From: Nostoc sp. RI_552
GTDB taxonomy: Bacteria > Cyanobacteriota > Cyanobacteriia > Cyanobacteriales > Nostocaceae
DNA length: 64,000 nt
Direction of reading: 5' to 3'
Assembly (NCBI GenBank): GCA_016124525.1
Contig: WGNO01000035.1
Location: 1-64,000 of the forward strand
Both the position numbers and the translations under genes were made by a program. Shown one piece after another: positions 1 through 58,542 of the stretch (within the stretch, counting starts at the first letter, position 1; each line of letters begins with the position of its first letter). The notes below the pieces were generated by a model. It was not told the DNA's origin and did not search any database. It worked only from the letters and a program-made list of their open reading frames with translations.

Positions 1-234
1 CATCACCACTTAATGTGTGGTTACCATCACCATTCACTGTTAATCTATCGTCATCATCACCACCACTTAATGTGTGGTTACCATTACCATTGACTGTCAA
101 GGTATCATTACCAGCATCACCACTTAATGTGTGGTTACCATTACCATTGACTGTCAAGGTATCATTACCAGCATCACCACTTAATGTGTGGTTACCATTA
201 CCATTGACTGTCAAGGTATCATTACCAGCACCAC
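1..234. repeat. 57-bp tandem repeat, four units, continuing past the window edge
   Basis: The anchor word CACTTAATG recurs at 7, 64, 121 and 178, an exact 57-bp period. The units at 64-234 are nearly identical at the base level; the one at the edge has diverged (Asp-rich variant). Each unit encodes 19 residues of the partial coding region on the minus strand, so the repeat is coding. Base-level identity suggests recent expansion or gene conversion. Confidence 0.93.
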
Positions 235-1459
235 CCCTAAAAGTGCTATTGCCGGTAGGATTAGACAGTCCAATATCATCAATACCAGAACCACCAGTAT
301 AATCAACCGCGCCAGAGTCTAACGTAAATGTCAGGTTACCTCTAGTGCCAGACGCGTTAATCGTAACATTTCTACCTAGTAAATCAATGTCATCAGTAAC
401 AGTTAGTCCAGCATCACCGTTTGGAGTACTGTCACCGTTGATGTTTATTGTACTCAGTAGTGGTGTGTTTAAAACTAGTGTTTCGATTGTATTATTTGCT
501 GGACTATTTGTTGCGGGAAATTCACTTTTGAGACTAATATTAACAGTGTTGACTCTGCTACCCTCAATTGTCAGAGCGTCGTGAGAAAAATTAAAGTTAC
601 CAAGTGGCAATGTGTTCGTCAATTGAGCATCCACAAGGGAAATGTTCCCATCGCTACCGTTACCAAAGTTAGCCCTGATGGAGGTATTGCTGACGTTATC
701 AATAGCAAGTCTAATGTTACGCAGTCCTCTGATATTTGGTATCTCTGAATCGCGATCCAAGATAGTACCCAAAAATTGGGGATTATTTTTTAGGGTAACT
801 TCCTTTAGACCTGAAAGACTAGGATTAGCACTGAAGTCAATAGTTCCTACCTTGAAGTTAATTAATTCTACCTTTTCCACACCCTGGAGTCTAGGCAGCA
901 CATTACTGGCGTTATAGTATTGGAAGGTATCAGTACCAGAACCACCTATAATCCGGTCGGTAGCTTGAACGCTGTTGGCATCGCCGATGATAATGTCATC
1001 ACCAGTGGTACCCGGTAGAATGTCATTGTTATCGGTGAAAACCAATTCTGTGCCAACAGACTCAGTAACGACGTTGGCGACAGATACCTTATTTCCCAGA
1101 ATCCTTTGAAGTGAGGGGTTAGGAGAATTTACTATCTGAGTAACTACACTTGCCGGATTCGCCGCCCATTCCCCAGCCAATGTAGTCAGGTCTGCTGGGG
1201 TTGGAGAGGCACCAAAAGCGTTGCTGTAAATTTTGTTAACAGCTTGTTGTGCGGTTAAACCATTATACTCATCTTGTACATCTACTGAATTAACAATCTG
1301 TTGGGTGATGTTGTCAATAGAAGATGTCCCATTATTCAACTGCCCAACATATCCATTTAAACTTGCGGGATCAGGGGCGCTACCCAGTAAGGCTACATAG
1401 CGCTGTTGAACATTTGACTTATTAGTTTCGGTTCTAGCACGCTCAAATCTGTTGACCAT
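1..1459 (-). CDS. Partial DUF4214-type repeat protein with RTX-like tandem repeats
   Basis: The reading frame is open from an ATG at 1459 to the left window edge (at least 486 codons), so the C-terminus is missing. I checked the frame at four places and found no stop. The first ~110 residues resemble the helical DUF4214 domain common in cyanobacterial surface or secreted proteins. The middle is a beta-rich Asn/Thr/Gly segment. The last ~90 visible residues are near-identical 19-residue units containing GDAGNDTL, similar to calcium-binding RTX nonapeptides (GGxGxD). No N-terminal signal peptide is visible, which fits type I secretion with a C-terminal signal, as is usual for RTX proteins. A GAGGAG Shine-Dalgarno lies about 13 bases upstream. 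Substrate or role is unknown; an extracellular or S-layer-like protein is an inference. Confidence 0.75.
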   Translation of the reverse strand, partial: MVNRFERARTETNKSNVQQRYVALLGSAPDPASLNGYVGQLNNGTSSIDNITQQIVNSVDVQDEYNGLTAQQAVNKIYSNAFGASPTPADLTTLAGEWAANPASVVTQIVNSPNPSLQRILGNKVSVANVVTESVGTELVFTDNNDILPGTTGDDIIIGDANSVQATDRIIGGSGTDTFQYYNASNVLPRLQGVEKVELINFKVGTIDFSANPSLSGLKEVTLKNNPQFLGTILDRDSEIPNIRGLRNIRLAIDNVSNTSIRANFGNGSDGNISLVDAQLTNTLPLGNFNFSHDALTIEGSRVNTVNISLKSEFPATNSPANNTIETLVLNTPLLSTININGDSTPNGDAGLTVTDDIDLLGRNVTINASGTRGNLTFTLDSGAVDYTGGSGIDDIGLSNPTGNSTFRGGAGNDTLTVNGNGNHTLSGDAGNDTLTVNGNGNHTLSGDAGNDTLTVNGNGNHTLSGGDDDDRLTVNGDGNHTLSGD

Positions 1460-2961: not shown

Positions 2962-3069
2962 GTAGCTCCTCACTTTAGGGGTTTGAGTTGTTTGATTGAT
3001 ACTTCACCCTATAATTTTACACTGTGGTAGGTATGATTGCTACTGCACTACCATAATTACACTTAGATA

Positions 3070-3588
3070 TCAAGGGGATTGTTCTAGATACTGCTGGTAA
3101 CCTAACTGTTGTAGTTTTACTTGCTTCTCCATGACTAATGCAGCTAGAGTTTGCCGATATTGCTGAACTTGAGCCATTAATTGTGGCTGGTGGGTAGCGA
3201 GGATTTGTACTGCTAAAATTCCGGCATTTTTGGCGTTGCCTATGGCTACTGTGGCCACTGGGATACCAGCAGGCATCTGTACTATAGAATAAAGTGAATC
3301 AACTCCTTGTAAGTTGCGGGTAGGGATGGGAACACCAATTACAGGCAAGGGCGTTAAAGATGCTACCATGCCTGGAAGATGGGCTGCACCCCCAGCACCG
3401 GCAATAATTACTTGAATACCTCTAGGGTGAGCTGTTTGGGCATATTCAACCATGCGTTCTGGGGTACGATGGGCAGAAACGATGGCTACTTCAGTTTCTA
3501 TACCAAATTCTCCACATATCGCGATCGCATTTTTCATGGTGGGCAGGTCGGAATCGCTACCCATGATAATACCAATTAGAGGAGCCAT
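3070..3588 (-). CDS. purE: N5-carboxyaminoimidazole ribonucleotide mutase
   Basis: Class I PurE converts N5-CAIR to CAIR in de novo purine synthesis, working after PurK in the cytoplasm. The 172 residues are the usual length. Visible signatures are the N-terminal [13 protein letters not shown] loop that binds the phosphate, SAHRTPERM with the catalytic His, the [11 protein letters not shown] glycine-rich segment, and PVIGVPI followed by a [12 protein letters not shown] motif. No purK is adjacent. The gene is followed leftward by the exported hypothetical gene on the same strand. Upstream (to the right) lies copy A of the intergenic repeat. Confidence 0.96.
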
Positions 3589-3640
3589 ATAATCAAATAA
3601 TTAGTGGTAATTTTGAGTGAAGAATTAATTGCTTTGACAC

Positions 3641-3780
3641 CAGAAGTGTTAAATCCTGCAATAAAAATTTACAATTTTTCCGTTTTACCCAGATAAAGTT
3701 CATTGTCTATTAAGAATGGAGTCATTAATTGCTCAAATTTTGTATCACTAACGCACAAATTGGACAGTCAACAGTCAACA
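3641..3780. repeat. Intergenic repeat copy A (~140 bp)
   Basis: The segment from CAGAAGTGTTAAATCC to the ACAGTCA heptamers matches 7478-7651 with only a few substitutions; the other copy carries a short internal duplication. It contains a small hairpin (AAAAATT-TAC-AATTTTT, at about 3664-3680) and ends in two ACAGTCA heptamers. It lies between purE and nagA, in the same orientation relative to the plus strand as copy B. Confidence 0.9.
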
Positions 3781-3853
3781 TTTCCGCTTTGACACTTGAT
3801 TAGTGTATCAAAGATTGTTTTACCCCACCTTCCCCGTTCCCTTATTACCTATT

Positions 3854-5017
3854 ATGAACACAGAGGAATTTTTACTTCCAGAGGTGAAGAATATAATCAA
3901 CGGGCGAGTCCCTGGTCATGAAGGTTTACAACGCATCTGTGTTAACTCTCAAGGGGTAGTTGAGGAAATCACTCCTATGAGCCTGGGATTTTCTAGTTGC
4001 GAGTCTTCACTAGATGTTGCTGGCGATTGGATTTCTCTAGGTGGTGTTGATTTACAGATTAATGGGGCTTTAGGGTTAGCTTTTACGGAATTATCCCGGG
4101 ATAATTCCCATCTACTGCCCAAGATATCTCTTTTTTTAGAAGATATGGGTATAGATGCATATTTACCAACTTTAGTGACTACATCAGTGGAAAATATACA
4201 GCGATCGCTCGGCATAATCGCTGATTTTACCACTACCCAAAGAGCAGGTGCGAAGATACTGGGAGTACATTTAGAAGGCCCATTTTTAAACTACCACAAG
4301 CGCGGGGCACACCCAGAAGAGTATTTATTGCCGCTGACGATTGTGCAAGTCGAAAGAGTTTTGGGCGATTATGCCCATGTTGTGAAAGTGATCACCTTAG
4401 CCCCAGAATTAGACACTACAAAGGAAGTAATACCATATTTGCGTTCTTTGGGCATAATTGTGAGTTTAGGCCATTCCCAGGCCACGGCGGCCCAAGGACA
4501 AACAGCTTTTCAACTGGGGGCAACAATGGTCACCCATGCTTTTAACGCCATGCCTCCATTACATCACCGAGAACCGGGATTATTAGGTGCAGCAATTACC
4601 CATCCCCATGTGATGTGTGGTGTGATTGCTGACGGTGAACACATTACACCCATGATGTTAGAGATTCTACTGCGAGCCAGGCACCAAGGGCTATTTCTAG
4701 TGAGTGATGCCCTTGCACCTCTGGGGCTACCCGATGGGGTGTATCCCTGGGACAATCGTTACATTGAAGTTAAAAATGGTACAGCACGATTACCGGATGG
4801 TACTTTATCAGGGACAACTTTACCCTTGTTGGTGGGGGTACAAAATTTAGTCAAGTGGGGAATTTGTAATGTGGAGACAGCCATATCCTTAGCCACAAAT
4901 GCACCTAGACAAGCGATGAATTTACCAGGAATTATTTCTCATCCAGCGGCCAATTTATTACGTTGGCATGAGGATGAAAGTGCAGGAAATTTAACCTGGC
5001 AAAGATTATTTACTTGA
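3854..5017 (+). CDS. nagA: N-acetylglucosamine-6-phosphate deacetylase
   Basis: NagA removes the acetyl group from GlcNAc-6-phosphate during amino-sugar and cell-wall recycling. The fold is an amidohydrolase barrel. Motifs include the metal-binding HLEGPF, GHSQATAAQG, THAFNAMPPLHHREPG and the catalytic Asp in LVSDALAPLGLPDG. The open frame extends 17 codons further upstream, but that part reads through low-complexity intergenic sequence (LFYPTFPVPLLP), so I prefer the ATG at 3854, giving 387 residues, the family's usual size. nagB is not nearby; nagZ, which supplies related cell-wall sugars, is at 61-62 kb. Confidence 0.92.
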   Translation: MNTEEFLLPEVKNIINGRVPGHEGLQRICVNSQGVVEEITPMSLGFSSCESSLDVAGDWISLGGVDLQINGALGLAFTELSRDNSHLLPKISLFLEDMGIDAYLPTLVTTSVENIQRSLGIIADFTTTQRAGAKILGVHLEGPFLNYHKRGAHPEEYLLPLTIVQVERVLGDYAHVVKVITLAPELDTTKEVIPYLRSLGIIVSLGHSQATAAQGQTAFQLGATMVTHAFNAMPPLHHREPGLLGAAITHPHVMCGVIADGEHITPMMLEILLRARHQGLFLVSDALAPLGLPDGVYPWDNRYIEVKNGTARLPDGTLSGTTLPLLVGVQNLVKWGICNVETAISLATNAPRQAMNLPGIISHPAANLLRWHEDESAGNLTWQRLFT

Positions 5018-5062
5018 ATTGACAATCAACAATTAAATAACCGCAACACAGACACATATTCT

Positions 5063-7147
5063 TTAAAGATGAGCCTCTCCCAATAAAACAATAGAACCTG
5101 TTAGTTCTTCAATTACTTGAGTTGTAACTTCACTTACAGCTAAACCACCTGTGGTACGATAACGGACAGAACGTAACACGGCTAAATCGAAGGCTTGAGC
5201 TTGGCGAACTATGGTTTTAGCAACATCGTCGTCTCTAATAATTTGAATATTTGTATTCACCTGTAACTTACTTTTAGCAACAATTTCAGACAATTGAGTT
5301 GTAAATTGTTCTACTAAATGGGAAGGGGTTTTGTAATTAAACACGTGTAATAGTACAACCTCAGCCTTATTGACATCAGCCAACATTTCTGCAAACCGCC
5401 AAGCGCTGATGGTTTGAGGTCTTAAATCTCCAATGGGGACAATAATTCTCGCGATGGTTTTCGGGCTACTGATTAAGCGTGTTACTGCTACTGGACAGTG
5501 GGAAGACCAGAAAACACTATCAATTACATTACCAAACAAGCGGGCGCGTAAACCAGTTGTTCGTGACCAACCCATAACTATTAAACTAGCATTTTGTTCT
5601 CGACTGGTGCGGCTAATTGCCAATGCAATATCATCATCAATACGAATTGCCGTTGACACTTGCACATTAAATTCTTGACTGATTTCTTCAGCCATTTTTA
5701 ATCTTTGCTGACTTTGCTTTAGTGATATTGCTAATTGTGGGTCATCCATGTGAACATGGGCTTTGGTAATAGCTAAAGGCAAAATTCGTCCAGATTGATG
5801 TTGAGCTATTAAGGCTGCCATTTCTATGAGGTAGCGCTGAGTTTGGGGGTTATATATTGGTACTGCTACAGTGAAGGTATCCTGAGTTCTCTCTGGTGGT
5901 TGACCATCATAACTTTCCCACCAAGTTGTTGAAAAATTCTCTGTTTCTAAATCTGTTTGGTGCATTTGTAATAACGCGGCAAATCTAGCTGTAATTAATG
6001 GACCCATTATGGAAGTAACTACCATGAGGACAATTACACTATTTAAAACACTCTCACTAATTAGCCTTTCACCAGCAGGATTTAAGCTTTGATAAGCGAC
6101 CAATGCTGCGGCTAATGTAGCAGCTACTTGTGGTAGTGACAAGGACCACATTGTCAACATTTGTGGATTGTTGTAGCGGTAAATGAGCTTGGCTAAAAAT
6201 GCTGCTATAAATTTACTGAGAACCAAAGCCGCTACAATTACTACTGTTAGGGATATTGAACTAAGAGTTTTGATAAATGCAGGAATATTAATTAGCAGTC
6301 CCATATCTACAAAAAAACAAGGGATAAATAAGACGCTACCAATAAACTCAATTTTTTCTTTAACCGGGCTACGTCCCACCACATCATTGACTGCCAAACC
6401 GGCTAAAAATGCACCAACAATTTTTTCAACTCCAACTATCTGCGCTCCTACTGATGCTAAAAATAAAGCCAGTAAAATAAATAAAAATTGGTTACTTTGT
6501 TCATCTCCAGAACGGCGAAAAAATTCTTTACCAGCCCAATCAAAGCCAAACAGTACAATCAGAGAGTAAAATGCTAATCCACCCAACAAACTTGCTAAAC
6601 TCATTGGTGAGAATTCTCCTCCATGAATTCCCACACAAATTGCCAATACTAGCAAAGCAGCTGTGTCAGTAAAAATTGTTGCACCTACTGTCACTGTCAC
6701 AGCTTCATTCATCACGACTCCCAAACGACTGACAATGGGATAAGCTAAGAGGGTATGGGAGGCTAGTAAAGAACCTATTAGGATGGAAGCATTCCACCCA
6801 AAATTAAATAATTGTCCCACAAATATCCCAGCAATGAATGGCACTAAAAATGTAAGTATTCCAAATACAATTGAACGATTTTTAGTTTTGTAAAACTGTT
6901 TTAAATCAATTTCTAACCCGGCGACAAACATTAAGTAAACTTTGCCTATATCTGAAAGCAGACTGACAGTTTCTGAATCAGAATTTAAAAGTTTTAGCCC
7001 ATTTGGCCCTAGGACTATACCTGCTACTAGTAACCCTACTAATCCAGGTAGTCGCAGTCGCTCAAATATAGGAGGTACAGTAAAAATAACTGTCAGGAGA
7101 ATTGTAAATTGAATGATGGGACTTTCAGTTAATAAGTTAGATGCCAT
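5063..7147 (-). CDS. CPA2-type Na+(K+)/H+ antiporter with two universal-stress domains
   Basis: A 694-residue protein. Residues ~10-390 form a Kef/NapA-like membrane domain of about 12 helices (GLVGLLVAGIVLGPNGL at the start; KFIAAFLAKL near the end). The rest contains two soluble domains resembling the universal stress protein fold, at ~420-550 and ~560-690, the first ending near GWSRTTGLRARLFGNVID. Such proteins exchange monovalent cations for protons at the plasma or thylakoid membrane and take part in pH and salt homeostasis. Ion specificity cannot be read from sequence. The gene converges on nagA with a ~45-base gap and stands alone. Confidence 0.88.
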   Translation of the reverse strand: MASNLLTESPIIQFTILLTVIFTVPPIFERLRLPGLVGLLVAGIVLGPNGLKLLNSDSETVSLLSDIGKVYLMFVAGLEIDLKQFYKTKNRSIVFGILTFLVPFIAGIFVGQLFNFGWNASILIGSLLASHTLLAYPIVSRLGVVMNEAVTVTVGATIFTDTAALLVLAICVGIHGGEFSPMSLASLLGGLAFYSLIVLFGFDWAGKEFFRRSGDEQSNQFLFILLALFLASVGAQIVGVEKIVGAFLAGLAVNDVVGRSPVKEKIEFIGSVLFIPCFFVDMGLLINIPAFIKTLSSISLTVVIVAALVLSKFIAAFLAKLIYRYNNPQMLTMWSLSLPQVAATLAAALVAYQSLNPAGERLISESVLNSVIVLMVVTSIMGPLITARFAALLQMHQTDLETENFSTTWWESYDGQPPERTQDTFTVAVPIYNPQTQRYLIEMAALIAQHQSGRILPLAITKAHVHMDDPQLAISLKQSQQRLKMAEEISQEFNVQVSTAIRIDDDIALAISRTSREQNASLIVMGWSRTTGLRARLFGNVIDSVFWSSHCPVAVTRLISSPKTIARIIVPIGDLRPQTISAWRFAEMLADVNKAEVVLLHVFNYKTPSHLVEQFTTQLSEIVAKSKLQVNTNIQIIRDDDVAKTIVRQAQAFDLAVLRSVRYRTTGGLAVSEVTTQVIEELTGSIVLLGEAHL

Positions 7148-7785
7148 TGGTATTTATAGTATTTTAAACTTTGATTAGGAAATCAAATCTATATATAGAG
7201 TGTACACGGATTTAGTAATTTATAGAAAAGCAACTCTCATAAACTAAGCAATACCATTGTACTTTATAAGTATACAGTAATCAGGAGTCATTAAAAACTA
7301 GAGGCAAAGCAAAAACTGAGGTTTAGTCACTGAAATGAATGGGAAATCAGTAATCTGGATAAAAATCACTAGTAAATGTTGATTTATATCCTAGACAGGG
7401 GTTGATATGAGTTGAAGGAGTGAAAAATTCGGTTTCATTTGTTCAAGTAACCAACAACCTGGAAAATCAATTATTATCAGAAGTGTTGAATCCTGCAATA
7501 AAAATTTACAATTTTTGCGTTTTACCCAGATAAAGTTCATTGTCTATTAAGAATAGAGTCATTTAAGAATAGAGTCATTAATTGCTCAAATTTTGTATCA
7601 CCGACGCACAACTTGGACAGTCAACAGTCAACAGTCAACACTCAACAGTCAACAATTATTATCTGTAATTAGTTACTATGCCGGAAGTGAGACCAGAAAG
7701 TAGTAAAAAAAATATGTCTGATTATTCTTGACCCTTGCTATTAATGATAATTTTAACCATGGGGAACACTTAAAAATTTTACTTT
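7148..7785. other. Intergenic region between divergent antiporter and chlM
   Basis: About 640 bases without a gene. It must hold the promoters of both divergent genes. The right half contains repeat copy B and a run of ACAGTCA heptamers. TTGACC at 7728-7733 followed by an AT-rich tract is a possible chlM promoter, but no -10 with good spacing is evident. Confidence 0.5.
7478..7651. repeat. Intergenic repeat copy B with internal duplication and heptamer tail
   Basis: Matches copy A at 3641-3780 almost base for base. Differences are a few substitutions and a 16-bp tandem duplication around 7549-7580 (AAGAATAGAGTCATT occurs twice here, once in copy A). The copy ends in five 7-bp units at 7617-7651 (ACAGTCA three times, one ACACTCA, one ACAGTCA). 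It lies ~135 bases before chlM. Copy A lies ~75 bases before nagA. Confidence 0.9.
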
Positions 7786-8472
7786 ATGAAGGTAGCTGAC
7801 GATAAAACGATTGTTCGGGAGTATTTTAATTCCACAGGGTTTGACCGATGGCGGCGAATTTATGGCGATGGTGAAGTCAACAAAGTCCAGTTAGATATCC
7901 GCAACGGACACCAGCAAACTGTAGATACAGTGATTGGCTGGCTCAAAGATGATGGTAATTTACCACAATTATCAATCTGCGATGCTGGATGTGGTGTGGG
8001 TAGTTTGAGTATCCCCTTGGCCGCAGATGGTGCTAAAGTCTATGCCAGCGATATTTCTGAGAAAATGGTGACAGAAGCTAAGGATAGAGCCTTACAAGCC
8101 TTGGGAAATTCTGAAAATACCATTTTCGCCGTACAGGATTTAGAATCCTTGGGTGGTAGCTACCACACAGTTATTTGCTTGGATGTTCTGATTCATTACC
8201 CCCAGGAAAAAGTCGAAGAGATGATTTCTCATCTTTGCTCTTTAGCAAAGTCAAGGGTAATTATGAGTTTTGCTCCCAAGACCTGGGCTTTGACTATACT
8301 GAAGAAAATCGGTAGTTTTTTTCCTGGACCAAGTAAAGCAACCCGCGCTTATCTTCACCGGGAGGCTGATGTGGTGAAAATCCTGGAAAATAACGGCTTC
8401 TCAGTGCAACGCCAAGGGATGACTAAGACTAGTTTTTATTACTCGCGTTTACTAGAAGCTACGCGGAAATAA
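7786..8472 (+). CDS. chlM: Magnesium-protoporphyrin IX methyltransferase
   Basis: ChlM methylates the C13 propionate of Mg-protoporphyrin IX with SAM, the step after Mg-chelatase in chlorophyll synthesis. The 228 residues match the family length. The N-terminal signature YFNSTGFDRWRRIYGDG is characteristic of ChlM/BchM, and the SAM-binding motif I reads DAGCGVGSLSIPLA, followed by VYASDIS. The C-terminal FYYSRLLEA is also typical. The gene is monocistronic: a strong terminator follows directly. Confidence 0.97.
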   Translation: MKVADDKTIVREYFNSTGFDRWRRIYGDGEVNKVQLDIRNGHQQTVDTVIGWLKDDGNLPQLSICDAGCGVGSLSIPLAADGAKVYASDISEKMVTEAKDRALQALGNSENTIFAVQDLESLGGSYHTVICLDVLIHYPQEKVEEMISHLCSLAKSRVIMSFAPKTWALTILKKIGSFFPGPSKATRAYLHREADVVKILENNGFSVQRQGMTKTSFYYSRLLEATRK

Positions 8473-14953: not shown

Positions 14954-15760
14954 ATGGCAAATCGAGAGCATCTGGCTTTACTCAAAGCAGGTGCAGTTCA
15001 ATGGATGGAGTGGAGACAGGAACATCCCCAGATGACACCAGATATCAGCGCGGCGAACCTCACAGGAGACAACCTCAGAGGGGCAAACCTCCAAGATGTC
15101 AACTTAAATAAGGTGGATTTAAGTAGTGCTTTACTTGTGCGAGCTAACTTGAGTAGGGCTGACTTGAGCGGTGCAAAGCTGCACAAAGCCAAGCTGATAG
15201 AAGCTAATCTGAATGCAGCTAACTTGAGTGTGGCTAATTTGAGTGGTGCTACACTTACCCAGGCAAATTTGAGTCAGGCAAATCTCATTGGTGCTGACTT
15301 GAGTCAGGCTAATCTTCAAGGCGCTATTATGACTGAAGCTAACCTCATTGGAACTGACTTGAGGGAGGCCAACTTGAAAGATGCTGATTTGGCTAGGGCG
15401 CAGTTAATCAGGGCTAACCTTTGTTTTGCTAATTTGATAGCAGCTAACTTAATTGGTGCTGATTTAAGTGAAGCAAATTTGTACGAGGCGGATTTTATTG
15501 GGGCTTATTTTTATCAAGCTAATTTTTACAGAGCTAATTTAAACCAGGCTCACCTCAGTGGGGCATACTTGTTTCAAGCTAACTTCAGTGAAGCTAATTT
15601 GAGTGGTGCTAATTTAACATGGACTAACTTAACAAGAGCTAATTTGAAAGGTGCTAATCTTACCGGTGCTAATTTGAGAGGTGCTAATGTCACCGGTGCT
15701 GATTTGAGAGGTGCTAATCTTCAGGAAGCAATTATGCCGGATTTGTGTAGGTGTGATTAG
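14954..15760 (+). CDS. Pentapeptide-repeat protein
   Basis: 268 residues, nearly all tandem A(N/D)LXX pentapeptides (about 40), which fold into a right-handed quadrilateral beta helix. The first ~40 residues (REHLALLKAGAVQWMEWR) are a helical cap common in cyanobacterial members. No membrane helix or extra domain is present. The ATG at 14954 is chosen because AAGGAGAG lies just upstream; the longer open frame begins inside ccmP. Pentapeptide proteins in cyanobacteria have few known functions. The placement directly after ccmP is noted, but no link to carboxysomes is established. Confidence 0.92.
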   Translation: MANREHLALLKAGAVQWMEWRQEHPQMTPDISAANLTGDNLRGANLQDVNLNKVDLSSALLVRANLSRADLSGAKLHKAKLIEANLNAANLSVANLSGATLTQANLSQANLIGADLSQANLQGAIMTEANLIGTDLREANLKDADLARAQLIRANLCFANLIAANLIGADLSEANLYEADFIGAYFYQANFYRANLNQAHLSGAYLFQANFSEANLSGANLTWTNLTRANLKGANLTGANLRGANVTGADLRGANLQEAIMPDLCRCD

Positions 15761-17195: not shown

Positions 17196-17957
17196 TTAGC
17201 GTCTGCCACGGTAAGGAACCGCACTGAGATAATCAATATCAAATGCAGAAAGCTTTTGAGCGTAGTTACCTTTGGCACCAACCGCTGCTGCCATATCCGC
17301 ATATTTGCGTGGGTCGCCTTCGGATAAGCGTCTTTCTTGGAACTTGCGGGTGTAGAATTTCTCCAAGGTAAAGCGCCAATCAGTTTTAACTGTGCCCACT
17401 TTTTCTTGAAATTCTTCGCCGTAACGAGGTGTTACCAAGTTGTGAGGACGACCTTCCATGCGTTTGCGCTGGTAGGGTACGATAGTGTCGCCAAAGTTTT
17501 GGGTGTATTCTTCACTATCTACTAAAGCATCAACAAAGCCGCTGAAACCTTTGGTAGCAATCACGATTGACCAAGCAATTTGTTCGTCTTTGTTGTAGGA
17601 CTCACGGCCTAAGATCCGCTTCAGGGTGATGTCTACTAAACGGTAGTTGTTGTTTGCCGAAACAACTAAACGATAAAACGCTTCAGACTTGGCTAAACCT
17701 CTGATGAAGTCGCGCACAGATAGAGAGCCGGTTTTGAGTTGAGATTCCAAAGCTTTTTGGCGGTTGAACTTGAGAATTTCATGTTCACTAAAAATTTGCC
17801 GATAGGCTGCCCAAATAATGCTTTGGATATCAGTGTAAGAGCTGACATCTTCCATTCGGTAGATGTATGGTGTGTCTTCATTTTGGTCAGCTATACCAAA
17901 ACTTTTGACTCGGTGATTTTGAGTGGTTGGTTTGTATTGAAGTAATGGCAGAGACAT
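17196..17957 (-). CDS. cpcG4: Phycobilisome rod-core linker CpcG4
   Basis: 253 residues. The PBS linker domain (Pfam PBS_linker_poly type) spans ~20-190: [47 protein letters not shown] and [12 protein letters not shown]. CpcG proteins connect phycocyanin rods to the allophycocyanin core. The length and the C-terminus ([15 protein letters not shown], with no hydrophobic tail) fit CpcG4 of Anabaena rather than the membrane-tailed CpcG3/CpcL type. It is the last gene of the cpc cluster, 202 bases after cpcG2. Confidence 0.9.
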
Positions 17958-18159
17958 ACTGCGTTCTTCCTTTGATTAACAGGTAAACAAAAAGCTAACT
18001 GGCAAAACTGAAGGAGGTGGGAATCCTCAAACCCTCATTCGTACTTTATTTATTCTCCCGCATTATGTTAATACCAAGAGCTGATTGCCCAGCAATTTAC
18101 TATTAACAAGAAACTTATTTCTGCGGTGACTCCTGGTAATGTAGCTAACAAGCAGCTAT

Positions 18160-18903
18160 TTACCGCAAGGGAAAATTCGCCATCGCATTGATGGATAAAG
18201 GGGTACCTTGGAGGTTGGTATCTCTTGTCATGTTGGGAATTTGGATGTTTGCCAGGTTAACTGGTGTAAATTTCAGGGTCTTGATTTCGATAGAATTAGC
18301 TAATTCCATGAAGTTCTTGATATCTCCTGGTTTATAGCGCTGGTTTTCTAACTTATCACGCCAGTAGTTACCGTAGCGTGGTGTGACTAAATTAAAGGGT
18401 CTGTCTTTAAAACGTCGCCGTTGGTAGGGAACTATATTGTCGCCAAAGTTGGTTTGATATTCTTGAGAGTCTATTAAAGCATCAACAAAACCATCCCAGC
18501 CCAGGGTAGCTATTTTAATTGACCAAGCAATTTCTTCGTCTTTATTGTAGGATGCGCGACCTAAAAGCCGTTTCAGGGCAATTTCTACCAGACGATAGTT
18601 AGAATTAGTCTCTACTACCAAAGAGCGAAAGGCTTCGGATTTAGCCAAGCCCCGGATAAAGTCACGGACAGTAATGGCTTTATTTTTGAGTTGAGATTCT
18701 AAGTTGCTTTGGCGATAGAATTTGAGGATTTCATGTTCGCTTAATACTTGCCGATAGGCTGCCCAAATTAATTCTTGGACTTCGCTATTAAAAGCACAGT
18801 CTTCAATGCGGTAAATCCTGGGGCTATCTTCGTTGGGAACTTCGTAACCGGCAACCCGCTGGTTTTGAGAACTGGGTTTGTATTCTAGTAAAGGAATGGT
18901 CAT
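18160..18903 (-). CDS. cpcG2: Phycobilisome rod-core linker CpcG2
   Basis: 247 residues, equal to Anabaena CpcG2. The linker domain reads [69 protein letters not shown] and LVTPRYGNYWRDK. The C-terminal ~50 residues differ from the other two copies, as expected if each CpcG contacts a different core site. The gene lies 42 bases after cpcG1, within the same leftward transcription unit. Confidence 0.92.
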   Translation of the reverse strand: MTIPLLEYKPSSQNQRVAGYEVPNEDSPRIYRIEDCAFNSEVQELIWAAYRQVLSEHEILKFYRQSNLESQLKNKAITVRDFIRGLAKSEAFRSLVVETNSNYRLVEIALKRLLGRASYNKDEEIAWSIKIATLGWDGFVDALIDSQEYQTNFGDNIVPYQRRRFKDRPFNLVTPRYGNYWRDKLENQRYKPGDIKNFMELANSIEIKTLKFTPVNLANIQIPNMTRDTNLQGTPLSINAMANFPLR

Positions 18904-18945
18904 GACAGTTGCCTACATCTGACTAGTTAAGTGAGGACTGATGTT

Positions 18946-19785
18946 TTAATTGGTGGGATTTTTGGGAATGTAACGATAAGGTAGAGCAACAGCTACAGGT
19001 TTTATGGTTGGTTGTGGTGTATCAGATGGGCGGGAGGTGTCGGGAATCTGCATATCTTTGATTTGGGAGGTAACTGTGGCTACTGTGCGTTGATAGTTAC
19101 GTTCATTTGTGATCACTTTTCCGGCCATGTCCATGAAAGTGGCAGGAATTACCCGACGAACCTCTTGTTTGCTAGCACGGCCTGTGGTGCGGGCGGTATA
19201 GAAGGAACGACCACCGATAGATTGCAACATCATGCGATCGCGCCAGTATGAACCGTAGCGGGGATTGACTAAGTTAAAGGGTCTGTCTTTATAGCGACGG
19301 CGTTGGAAAGGTACAATGTCATCGCCAAAGTTTTGAAGATATTCTTCACCGTCCACCAAGGCATCAATAAAACCGTGTAATCCTTTGGTACCAATGACAA
19401 TTGACCAAGCAATTTCTTCGTCTTTGTTGTAGGCGGCGCGTCCTAAAAACCGCTTTAAGGTAATATCCACTAAGCGGTAGTTGGTGTTGATGTCGGCTAC
19501 TTGTGTCCGGTAAACTTCAGATTTACCCAATCCCCGGATAAAATCGCGGACGTTAATGGACTGATTTCGCAATTGAGATTCTAAAAATTTCTGGCGATTG
19601 CTTTGAATAATTAAGTGTTCGCTGAAAATTTGTCGATATGCTGCCCAAATAATCGCATCAATATCTGTATCTGAGGTAGCAGCAGTTAAGCGATATATTG
19701 TTGGTGTATCTTCGTTGGGTACCTCGTAACCTTCTACACGCTGATTTTGAGTGGTGAGTGGATAATTGAGCAATGGTATTGACAT
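18946..19785 (-). CDS. cpcG1: Phycobilisome rod-core linker CpcG1
   Basis: 279 residues from the ATG at 19785, chosen because AAGGAAAA lies ~8 bases upstream and the protein then starts MSIPLLNYPLTTQNQRVEGY, as CpcG1 does. A longer frame would overlap the end of cpcF. The linker domain is followed by a C-terminal extension (~190-279) rich in basic and Thr/Pro residues. It docks peripheral rods on the tricylindrical core. The gap to cpcF is 19 bases, consistent with one operon. Confidence 0.94.
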   Translation of the reverse strand: MSIPLLNYPLTTQNQRVEGYEVPNEDTPTIYRLTAATSDTDIDAIIWAAYRQIFSEHLIIQSNRQKFLESQLRNQSINVRDFIRGLGKSEVYRTQVADINTNYRLVDITLKRFLGRAAYNKDEEIAWSIVIGTKGLHGFIDALVDGEEYLQNFGDDIVPFQRRRYKDRPFNLVNPRYGSYWRDRMMLQSIGGRSFYTARTTGRASKQEVRRVIPATFMDMAGKVITNERNYQRTVATVTSQIKDMQIPDTSRPSDTPQPTIKPVAVALPYRYIPKNPTN

Positions 19786-19804
19786 GTTTAGTTTTTCCTT
19801 TTTT

Positions 19805-40704: not shown

Positions 40705-40767
40705 TGACTTCAGCTACTCTAGTGGAGGGAGCCAGGGAATAAATGAAGAGTCTCATTGCTGAAGTCA
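40705..40767. other. Inverted repeat after the GH57 gene
   Basis: TGACTTCAGC (40705-40714) pairs with GCTGAAGTCA (40758-40767) around a 43-base loop, in the 298-base gap between the GH57 and psiE-like genes. The adjoining CAATGA/TCATTG can pair alternatively. No T-run follows, so terminator function is uncertain. Confidence 0.4.
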
Positions 40768-40893
40768 GTTGAAATCAACCATTTTATCCTCACCGACCCC
40801 AGAGGTTGATGTGAAAAAGTTCTCCAGAATAACTTTTAAAATTGTGAATTGCCTAAGATAAATTTAGAAGAAACTAAAATATCTGGAGTTACT

Positions 40894-52073: not shown

Positions 52074-55000
52074 TCAAACCACAACTACCTCACCAACAGC
52101 ACCTTGCATTTTATTGAACGCATCTAATAAACTTTGCAGTTGCTGATCAGCTTTTAACACAGCTAAACCGCGTACTGTCACCTTACCAGGAGAATAAACA
52201 AAACGTGTTTTTAAATGTTCTGGTAAATTCCCTGCTAGTAAATTCCAAGCAGGTTCTTCCATAGGGGTTTCTAAGACAATATGTTGCTTATTTTCTGGTT
52301 TAATGCGGCTAAATCCTAACTTTTTCGCTAATTGCTTCAGTTCCATCACTCGTAACAGTTGATTTGCTGGAGTCGGTAAAGCACCATAGCGATCGCCCCA
52401 CTCAGCTGCGATATACTTTAATTCTTCTAAAGATTTCGCTGCGGCCACAGCGCGATAAGCGCTCATCTTTTGGTCTAAATCAGGAATATAATCAGATGGA
52501 ATAAACGCTGTGAGGTTGAGGTCAATTTGGGTGTCATCAACTTTGGGTATTTCTTGTCCTCTGATTTCTCGAATCGCTTCTTCCAACATTTCCATATACA
52601 AATCAAAGCCGATGGCTTCCATTTGACCGGATTGTTCTGCACCTAGCAAGTTACCCACACCCCGAATTTCCATGTCCCGCATTGCTAACTGATATCCAGA
52701 ACCGAGTTGAGTAAATTCTTGAATCGCCCGTAACCTTTGCCGGGCTGCATCTGATAAAGCTTGTTGTTTGGGATAAAATAACCAAGCGTGCGCTTGTATT
52801 CCTGCGCGTCCCACACGACCACGTAATTGGTATAACTGAGACAAACCAAAACGATGGGCATCTTCAATTAAAATTGTATTCACTCGCGGAATATCTAAAC
52901 CAGATTCAATAATGGTTGTACAAACAAGAATATCCGCATCACCATTACTGAAGGTCAGCATAGTTGATTCCAATTCGCTTTCATCCATTTGGCCATGAGC
53001 AATGGCAAACCTCCCCCCTGGTATCATTTCTCGTAAGTTGGCTGTGAGTTCTTCAATACCTTCCACTCGGGGTACTACATAAAATACCTGTCCGCCCCTG
53101 TCTAATTCCTGACGAATGGCACTGCGGACAATTTCTGGTTTCAACGGCGCTAGGTGGGTTTTAATTGGTCTTCTGGTGGGAGGCGGTGTAGTAATCAAAC
53201 TCATTTCCCGAATCCCGGACAAAGACATATATAAAGTACGGGGAATGGGAGTAGCGGAAAGGGTGAGGACATCAACTTGAGTTTTCAAGCTTTTAATTTT
53301 TTCTTTTTGGTTCACCCCAAATCTTTGTTCTTCATCCACCACCAACAGTCCTAAATCGCGAAAGGTGACATTTTTGCCTAAAAGTTGGTGCGTACCCACG
53401 ACTATATCTAACTCCCCGGTAGCTAATCGCTTTTGAATAGTGCGGCGTTCTTCAGCTGTGCGGAAACGGTTAAGTAAGCCAATATTTACTGGGTAAGGAG
53501 CAAAGCGTTCTTTGAGGGTGTGGTAATGTTGTTGAGTTAGGATAGTGGTGGGTGCTAACAGTGCAACTTGTTTCCCTGCGGTGACAGCTTTAAAAATTGC
53601 CCGAATAGCTACTTCTGTTTTCCCAAAACCCACGTCACCACAAATCAAACGATCCATTGGGCGATCGCTTTCCATATCTCGTTTGACGTCTTGCACTGCT
53701 TTGAGCTGGTCTGTGGTGGGTTGGTAAGGAAAAGAATCTTCCATTTCTTCTTGCCAAGGCATATCCTGTGCATAGGTATAGCCTTGTTGCTTGGATCGTG
53801 CTGCATACAGTTTGAGCAAGTCCACCGCTAATTTTTTGATGGCTTTGCGAACTCTGGTTTTGGTGTTATCCCAAGCTTTACCAGTCATTTTGTGCAATTC
53901 TGGCGGTTTATCTCCTATGCGGCGAAAGCGAGATAAAGAACCTACTTGATCGGCGGCAACTCTGAGGATGCCATCGGCATATTTTACTACTAAATAATCA
54001 CGAGTTTCGTGATTAATTGTTAGACTCTCCAGTTTAACAAATTGACCGATGCCGTGGCTTTTGTGAACTACATAATCTCCCTGACGCAGCTTATGAGGGT
54101 CTACTTGTTTAGAACTGGCCTGGCGACGCTTGCGGATATATCCTGGTGTAGCTAGAGAATGCTGTCCGTAAAACTCGCGGTCAGTCACCACCACCAGACG
54201 GTATGTAGGCATGATAAAGCCTTCTAGTTCTGCTAAACCAGAATATTTCAGAGCTACAGGTATATGATTAATTTGTAACTTGTCAATTGCTTGGTAGTCC
54301 CGGGGATTGGGAATAAACTGAGCCGGACAATCGTGTTCTTGCAGGAGAGAAACAGAACGGGAAGGTTGGGCAGAAATTAACCAAATGGAAAAATTGCGAT
54401 CGCGCTGTTGTCTCAAGGTTTCCGCCAGTTTACCAAATTGATGTGGTGTCAGAGGTAAGCCTCGACTAGCCAAATTTATACCACTGCTTTCTTCGGCTAA
54501 TTCCGATAAATATAAAGTTTTAAATTTAATCACATCACCTAGGCATTGATCAAAAGAGCGATGAATCTTGGGCAATTTTAGGAAAATATCAGCCAATTCT
54601 TCCCCAAAACCCAATCCCCATTGTTCTTCGGCATTTTCTACCCAGCGATCACTATGTGCATGACACTGTTCTGGTTCATCAATAGCGACTAAAGTATTTG
54701 CAGTTAAATAATCTAACAGTGATGCGGGTTGTGGAAAAGCCAAGCCTAAAAAACGCCCCCGTCCTTCTGGTAGTTCTGAGTCTGTGGATAGACGATTCAT
54801 CGCCTGGGTAAAATGGGTATTGTCTTGTAGTGCAGCCAAAATAATAGGAGCAAAGCTAGTGGGAGTCAGGGTGATTTGCTGAATTTTGTCAAGGGCGGAA
54901 CGTTGACTAGCAGGATCAAATTCGCGGATTTTCTGAATTTCGTCACCAAACCACTCTAATCTCACGGGCATTTCCGAGGAAACCGGGAAAATATCAACGA

Positions 55001-58381: not shown

Positions 58382-58542
58382 AAACTTGTATAAAGAGTAA
58401 ATTTTCTAGAGACACAATTAATAGTGCCTCTACTTGTGCTTATTGCTCGTATCTTTGTGTAGTGGTGAGGGATCAGTCGGTTTTTAATCGACTTGAGCCA
58501 TGAGAATCTTAATTTATTCCCTGGCTCACTAATACCTCTACA

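What the first reader, a model, noticed from the sequence alone, without database searches (positions are those of the whole stretch)
3641..7651. Two near-identical ~145-bp intergenic repeats flanking nagA and the antiporter
3641-3780 and 7478-7651 match almost completely, in the same orientation, each upstream of a rightward gene (nagA, chlM) and ending in ACAGTCA heptamers. Copy B has an internal 16-bp duplication. Conservation over the full length exceeds what is expected for neutral intergenic DNA. It may be a MITE, a duplicated promoter or a small RNA gene.
Basis: seen in the sequence. Interest (0 to 1): 0.55.

Follow-up and report, generated by a model that had tools for sequence, protein, structure and literature searches.

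The report
Cyanobacterial mini-transposon with repeat-tract end
The two repeats are two independent insertions of a small, recently multiplied 'hitch-hiker' transposon in a cyanobacterium, ordinary in kind but unusual in that a tract of 7-base repeats seems to serve as one of its ends, letting the end slip by one unit.

Summary
In detail: 3641-3786 and 7478-7653 carry the same ~132-bp core. They are not a local duplication. The core occurs at 49 places in this genome, and exact 9-bp target-site duplications flank 23 of the 43 scored (null 0.17%), both window copies included. It is a MITE. Its ends resemble those of an IS4Sa-like insertion sequence in the same genome, of which 10 left/right contig-end pairs share exact 9-bp duplications. 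A 165-bp form with an ordinary right inverted repeat lives in related Nostocaceae; 27 of 216 other genomes of the family match all or part of the core. Here that right end is replaced by tandem GTCAACA heptamers plus TTTCTG, seen in 0 of 44 places examined in relatives. Eight of the 23 exact insertions end one heptamer earlier, at GTCAAC. The cut lies 6 nt outside a TGTTGA core in 22 of 23, and the eight are not one clade. So the heptamer tract probably acts as a movable transposon end. Promoter, terminator and small-RNA readings found no support. New variant of a known kind.

The parts
3641..3786 (+). MITE copy A, 146 bp; left end CAGAAGTGTTAA, two heptamers, right end ATTTCCG (variant of ATTTCTG)
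   Evidence: 6 differences from consensus in 132 core positions
3632..3640 (.). left 9-bp target-site duplication of copy A (CTTTGACAC)
   Evidence: site without the element in relative G038
3787..3795 (.). right 9-bp target-site duplication of copy A (CTTTGACAC)
7478..7653 (+). MITE copy B, 176 bp; core identical to consensus apart from the 16-bp duplication; heptamer tail; ends at GTCAAC without TTTCTG (alternative right end)
7469..7477 (.). left 9-bp target-site duplication of copy B (AATTATTAT)
7654..7662 (.). right 9-bp target-site duplication of copy B (AATTATTAT)
7547..7579 (+). 16-bp tandem duplication inside copy B (TTAAGAATAGAGTCAT), seen in none of the other 45 aligned copies
7617..7653 (+). 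heptamer tract (ACAGTCA / GTCAACA units) that forms the right end of copy B

Best explanation
The repeats are two copies of a non-autonomous transposon (MITE); copies with exact duplications are 132-176 bp long. Shown from sequence: imperfect terminal inverted repeats (CAGAAGTGTTGA at the left; CAGAAATGTTGAC read inward from the right), 49 places in this genome, and exact 9-bp target duplications at over half of the places where this could be scored. Inferred: it is moved in trans by the DDE/YREK transposase of an IS4Sa-like IS of the same genome, which has nearly the same ends and the same 9-bp duplication (this much carries the confidence given). Inferred further, about 0.75 likely: the transposase recognises the TGTTGA core and cuts 6 nt outside it. 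In this lineage the MITE's right end was replaced by tandem GTCAACA heptamers (TGTTGAC on the other strand), so each heptamer offers the core again and the cut can fall one heptamer further in. That gives copies, including window copy B, that end at GTCAAC with no TTTCTG. Effect on nagA or chlM: none shown; most likely neutral intergenic insertions.
For: 49 places. Exact 9-bp duplications at 23 of 43 scored places (6 of the 49 left out), against 0.17% of 1806 mismatched pairings. IS ends: 16 distinct left and 15 right ends in the fetched stretches; 10 left/right pairs share an exact 9-mer, against 1 match in 3360 off-register comparisons. Named relatives of the IS: inverted repeats plus an 8-10-bp duplication with at most 1 mismatch in 41 of 80 loci, 39 of them exact at 9 bp; 1182 bp long in Sphaerospermopsis and Anabaenopsis. 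Transposase of a named relative: IS4 family NF033592 at 200.7 bits (cutoff 115); YxxRxxxExxxxxxK motif and 50% identity to IS4Sa, whose plasmid copy also has CAGAAGTGTTGA and, read by eye, a 9-bp CATCAGACC duplication. 165-bp form in relatives with exact duplications in 15 of 30 full copies. 8 of 23 exact copies end at GTCAAC; core offset 6 nt in 22 of 23. The eight are not one clade: 8 changes on the tree, p-AU 0.0055. Site A lacks the element in relative G038.
Against: No transposition was observed. The IS is not assembled whole here (only ends, and a decayed copy on contig C11), so an intact transposase in this genome is inferred. 20 of 43 scored places lack an exact duplication: 6 have one mismatch, 14 two or more; three of the 14 (C23, C61, C67) sit at contig ends, others are decayed or unexplained. 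15 of 30 full copies in relatives lack an exact duplication too. Of the 80 named IS loci 39 failed: in 20 no right end was found, 17 had both ends but no duplication, 2 had no left end; no shuffled control was run for that test. MITE and IS of this genome share only about the terminal 12-14 bp (by eye). The tree is a quick one on 118 columns with few differences, and one set of identical rows lies on both sides.
Confidence: 0.9

Rival explanations
1. A local segmental duplication of one intergenic region, without mobility.
For: Two copies 3.8 kb apart in the same orientation.
Against: 49 places on many contigs; each window copy has its own, different 9-bp duplication and unlike flanks; site A lacks the element in G038, and the shorter upstream region of chlM in G038 and G001 shows none, though it aligns poorly.
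Confidence: 0.01
2. A conserved regulatory element or small RNA gene (promoter, riboswitch, sRNA) kept by selection upstream of genes.
For: 0 of 27 copies lie inside an ORF of at least 100 aa, against 72.7% of random positions in the same flanks. Both window copies lie upstream of genes.
Against: No Rfam match, no promoter or terminator match at copy A, folding like shuffles, absent at site A in a relative. Avoidance of genes is expected from purifying selection on insertions.
Confidence: 0.04
3. The alternative right ends are not made by the transposase: copies first inserted with the full ATTTCTG end and lost it later through slippage or deletion in the heptamer tract.
For: The tract varies in unit number between copies, so slippage happens.
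Against: In 8 of 8 the exact 9-bp duplication directly follows GTCAAC; slippage inside the tract would leave ATTTCTG in place, and a precise loss of only these 7 bp up to the duplication eight times is unlikely.
Confidence: 0.1
4. A REP/RAYT-type or IS200/IS605-type element moved by a Y1 transposase.
For: One relative copy (G014, L108) lies inside what looks like an IS200/IS605-type tnpA (read by eye).
Against: 9-bp duplications and inverted repeats at both ends are not made by Y1 transposases (recalled knowledge); in G193 a MITE at a similar sequence has its own duplication CTCCAGACC (L302), so that gene is a target, not the source.
Confidence: 0.01

Closest known systems
IS4Sa (Synechocystis PCC 6803), IS4 family
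   Same: Its transposase is 50% identical over ~340 aa to those of the named relatives of the partner IS, with the YREK motif; left end CAGAAGTGTTGA; 9-bp duplication.
   Different: IS4Sa is autonomous; the window element is too short for a transposase and resembles the IS only at its ends.
MITEs of Anabaena sp. 90 (147 complete or partial copies; PMC3542288, passages read)
   Same: Nostocaceae, short, multi-copy, 132 of 147 intergenic.
   Different: That paper classed them as type II because it found no IS with matching ends; the sequences in its supplement were not seen, so identity with this family is untested.
BrickBuilt MITE of Porphyromonas gingivalis (PMC4596501, abstract and part 1 of section 7 read)
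   Same: A MITE that contains a tandem repeat; intergenic; ends similar to those of an IS.
   Different: Its 23-nt repeats lie inside, between leader and tail; here a 7-nt repeat forms the end itself and resembles the inverted-repeat core. BrickBuilt has no constant target duplication.
Heptanucleotide STRR repeats of heterocystous cyanobacteria (recalled; Mazel et al. 1990 not read)
   Same: Same kind of unit: GTCAACA/GTCAACC arrays also occur outside the MITE in this genome.
   Different: STRRs are not known, as far as I recall, to be transposon ends.
Nezha MITE of Anabaena variabilis (title seen in a reference list only; host recalled)
   Same: Cyanobacterial MITE reported as active.
   Different: Sequence not compared.

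Membership tests
MITE (non-autonomous DNA transposon) | short, no transposase gene, multi-copy | tested here: met
   132-176 bp for copies with exact duplications, too short for a transposase; 49 places
MITE (non-autonomous DNA transposon) | terminal inverted repeats | tested here: met
   CAGAAGTGTTGA / CAGAAATGTTGAC, imperfect; in the 8 alternative-end copies the outer 6 bp of the right repeat are absent
MITE (non-autonomous DNA transposon) | target-site duplication of constant length | tested here: met
   9 bp exact in 23 of 43
MITE (non-autonomous DNA transposon) | ends shared with an autonomous IS | tested here: met
   CACAAGTGTTGAATGT / CAGAAATGTTGAATGT at IS ends: right end 12 bp alike, left end 13 of the first 14 (by eye)
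MITE (non-autonomous DNA transposon) | mobilised in trans by that IS | not testable with these tools
   needs a transposition assay
IS4 family, IS4Sa-like (for the partner IS) | IS4-family DDE transposase with the Y-(2)-R-(3)-E-(6)-K motif | tested here: met
   motif in the named relatives L212 and L223, family model for L223; in this genome only the N-terminal part is assembled (P0001) plus a decayed copy whose pieces score below the whole-protein cutoff
IS4 family, IS4Sa-like (for the partner IS) | 9-bp target duplication | tested here: met
   10 exact contig-end pairs here; exact 9-bp duplications in 39 of 80 named loci, 41 passing in all
Rfam small RNA | match to a curated family | tested here: not met
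   (3000-8400)

The most novel reading that the evidence does not exclude
Cyanobacterial heptamer repeat arrays (GTCAACA type) act as latent transposon ends for IS4Sa-type transposases: any array near a single left end can complete a mobile unit, and such one-heptamer-shifted transposition spreads and trims the arrays themselves, which would help explain the long-unexplained STRR heptamers of heterocystous cyanobacteria.
Probability: 0.15. Interest if true: 0.65.

Novelty: new variant of a known kind. Interest (0 to 1): 0.4.

Why it matters
As a MITE it is ordinary. The useful part is a natural series of insertions suggesting that a transposon end can be made of tandem heptamers carrying only the inner recognition core, with the cut keeping a fixed 6-nt offset. 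That separates core recognition from the terminal bases in an IS4-family system, and offers a testable link between IS4Sa-type transposases and the heptamer repeats of cyanobacteria. It also warns that such repeats should not be read as conserved regulatory DNA.

Tried and rejected
Plasmid and phage collections: no match to the copy-A region, nor of the 165-bp form in plasmids. Named-genome pattern scan: no exact match; near relatives may be left out of that collection. Viral contigs: no exact match. Rfam, promoter/terminator scan and folding gave nothing. Promoter, sRNA and local duplication were rejected for the reasons under the rivals. The idea that heptamer tails go with higher copy number was dropped: G069 has 18 full-length copies with the ordinary form among 40 of 92 candidates scored. 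No fold prediction was run.

Origin of the tail is open. Either the 7-bp repeat core TTCAACA was duplicated (C18:4928 has GGACATTCAACAATCAACATTTCTG; C7:50310 has GTCAACATTCAACAGTCAACATTTCTG), or a pre-existing heptamer array was captured.

Literature searches: among the papers listed I saw none whose title or shown abstract describes a heptamer-tract transposon end. Only open-licence PMC papers are searched, only the listed rows were looked at, and one search was badly set (whole-word matching of a word stem), so its zero means nothing.
Full report
What was checked. The two window repeats are real, direct and intergenic. Copy A lies between purE (leftward) and nagA; copy B between a CPA2-type antiporter (leftward; its best model is below the cutoff) and chlM.

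Copy number. A 140-bp query from copy A finds 40 scored matches (of 92 candidates) in the window's own genome (4.2 Mb, 80 contigs). Two core 23-mers have 45 and 48 matches with up to 3 mismatches, with 0 in the reversed controls. Merging gives 49 places. At least two of these are probably one copy seen at two contig ends: C21:16239 and C67:1 share the left 9-mer TTGTAGATG. One more diverged copy, C7:50310, is not among the 49. 46 of the 49 were aligned; median divergence from consensus is 2.3%, copy A 4.5%, copy B 0% in the core; C50:4155, at 14.4%, is an outlier whose start was misplaced in the script.

Ends and target duplications. Six of the 49 places lack a usable left end. Of the 43 scored, 23 have an exact 9-bp duplication, 6 have one mismatch, 14 have two or more. 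Pairing left 9-mers with other copies' right flanks gives an exact match in 0.17% of 1806. Three of the failures sit at contig ends (C23, C61, C67). Among the 23, 15 end in TTTCTG or a one-base variant (copy A: TTTCCG; C7:20032: TTTCTA) and 8 end at GTCAAC, copy B among them. C11:52338 (1 mismatch) and C65:42998 (2) may end at GTCAAC too and were not counted.

Partner IS. The 12-bp left end was searched in the genome (its list was cut) and 16-mers around it. Besides the MITE they mark many places near contig ends, most starting CACAAGTGTTGAATGT or CAGAAATGTTGAATGT, as expected of one collapsed multi-copy IS. In the stretches fetched there are 16 distinct left and 15 right ends; 10 pairs share an exact 9-mer, against 1 match in 3360 off-register comparisons. 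The left end leads into a transposase N-terminus. A decayed copy on C11 gives ORFs matching the IS4-family model NF033592 (E 1.7e-10, 8.1e-18 and 3.3e-6, each below the whole-protein cutoff), one of them also DDE_Tnp_1. Two internally deleted copies, 606 bp and 367 bp, lie on C22. Relatives of the transposase were found in 110 stretches of named genomes; 80 loci were kept. Of these 80, 41 show both inverted repeats and a duplication of 8-10 bp with at most 1 mismatch, 39 of them exact at 9 bp; of the other 39, 20 had no right end found (some cut by a contig end), 17 had both ends but no duplication, and 2 had no left end (no shuffled control). Full proteins from Sphaerospermopsis kisseleviana NIES-73 (L212) and Anabaenopsis elenkinii (L223) have the YREK motif and are 50% identical to IS4Sa. 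The Synechocystis IS4Sa copy read here has CAGAAGTGTTGA at its left end and a 9-bp duplication CATCAGACC (by eye).

Relatives. With the consensus as query, 28 of 217 genomes of the family, this one included, have a match at E <= 1e-5, in 13 of 56 genera. Some of these match only part of the core, and only 4 candidates per genome were scored, so copy numbers there are lower bounds. With the 165-bp form as query, 12 of 13 chosen genomes match; G069 has 20 matches, 18 of them full length (at most 40 candidates scored per genome). The one same-genus genome held, G001, has none of the 165-bp form and none, only matches of 41 and 35 bp to the left end. In 44 distinct places examined in the loci held of relatives none has tandem GTCAAC heptamers; 30 are full length and 15 of these have an exact 9-bp duplication. 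A search of 718 kb of held stretches from relatives and named genomes found no run of three GTCAACN units. The right end of the 165-bp form is CAGAAGTGTTGAATGTTAAG read inward, like the left end of the IS; a 21-bp exact match between that MITE end and IS left ends is seen in many named loci, and its first 33 bp are 85% like the right end of the IS in Oscillatoria sp. PCC 10802. So the 165-bp form is best read as an IS deletion derivative, and the heptamer tail as a later replacement in this lineage (inference). In Fortiea sp. LEGE XX443 a MITE copy lies just behind the transposase N-terminal match; its flanking 9-mers differ.

Movable end. In 22 of 23 exact copies TGTTGA begins 6 nt inside the right cut; in the last, C80:8240, the core reads TTTTGA at the same place. 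This holds for CAGAAA-TGTTGAC ends and for GTTGAC-TGTTGAC ends alike. The eight GTTGAC-ended copies need 8 changes on the tree of the core (45 copies, C50:4155 left out; 23 labelled), and one clade of the eight against the other 37 is rejected (p-AU 0.0055; quick tree, 118 columns, one set of identical rows on both sides left free). All eight have a second TGTTGA unit inside, as the model requires. The simplest reading is that the transposase recognises the core in any heptamer and cuts a fixed distance outside it.

Effects. Of 29 copies with at most one mismatch, 2 had short flanks; of the other 27, none lies inside an ORF of 100 aa or more, against 72.7% of random positions in the same flanks (mechanical ORFs). 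Site A in G038 lacks the element; the flanks there have other small differences. At site B the upstream region of chlM in G038 and G001 lacks it too, but aligns poorly. No promoter or terminator match at copy A, no Rfam family and no stable fold was found, so no regulatory role is claimed.

Verdict. A MITE family of IS4Sa type with an unusual heptamer-tract end: a new variant of a known kind. Confidence is high for the MITE reading, moderate for the movable end.

Noticed in passing
window 40726-40774 and 58482-58530: Inverted 49-nt pair (84%) with an AGCCAGGGAATAAAT motif; L127 carries a similar CCAGGGAGTAAATTCCCTGGCTC stretch, so probably a second interspersed repeat family.
   Followed up: no
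window 1-296: 57-bp tandem repeats (4.1 copies) running off the window start, possibly inside a repeat-rich protein gene.
   Followed up: no
window 15503-15721: 15-bp periodic array (GCTAATTTGAGAGGT), reading like a pentapeptide-repeat gene (protein not tested).
   Followed up: no
window 17403-19801: Three related units ~0.9 kb apart (67-80% identical pieces), probably duplicated genes.
   Followed up: no
L175-L179 (contig C9), also C68, C30: Heptamer arrays (GTCAACA, GTCAACC; on C9 also ATCACCC, GTCACCC) outside the MITE; possible source or product of the MITE tail.
   Followed up: partly
L108 (G014) 1501-1665; L302 (G193): The 165-bp form of the MITE lies in what looks by eye like an IS200/IS605-type tnpA; in L302 it has an exact 9-bp duplication.
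   Followed up: partly
L129 (C22:35923-36528 and 53528-53894): Two internally deleted copies of the partner IS, intermediate between IS and MITE in size.
   Followed up: partly
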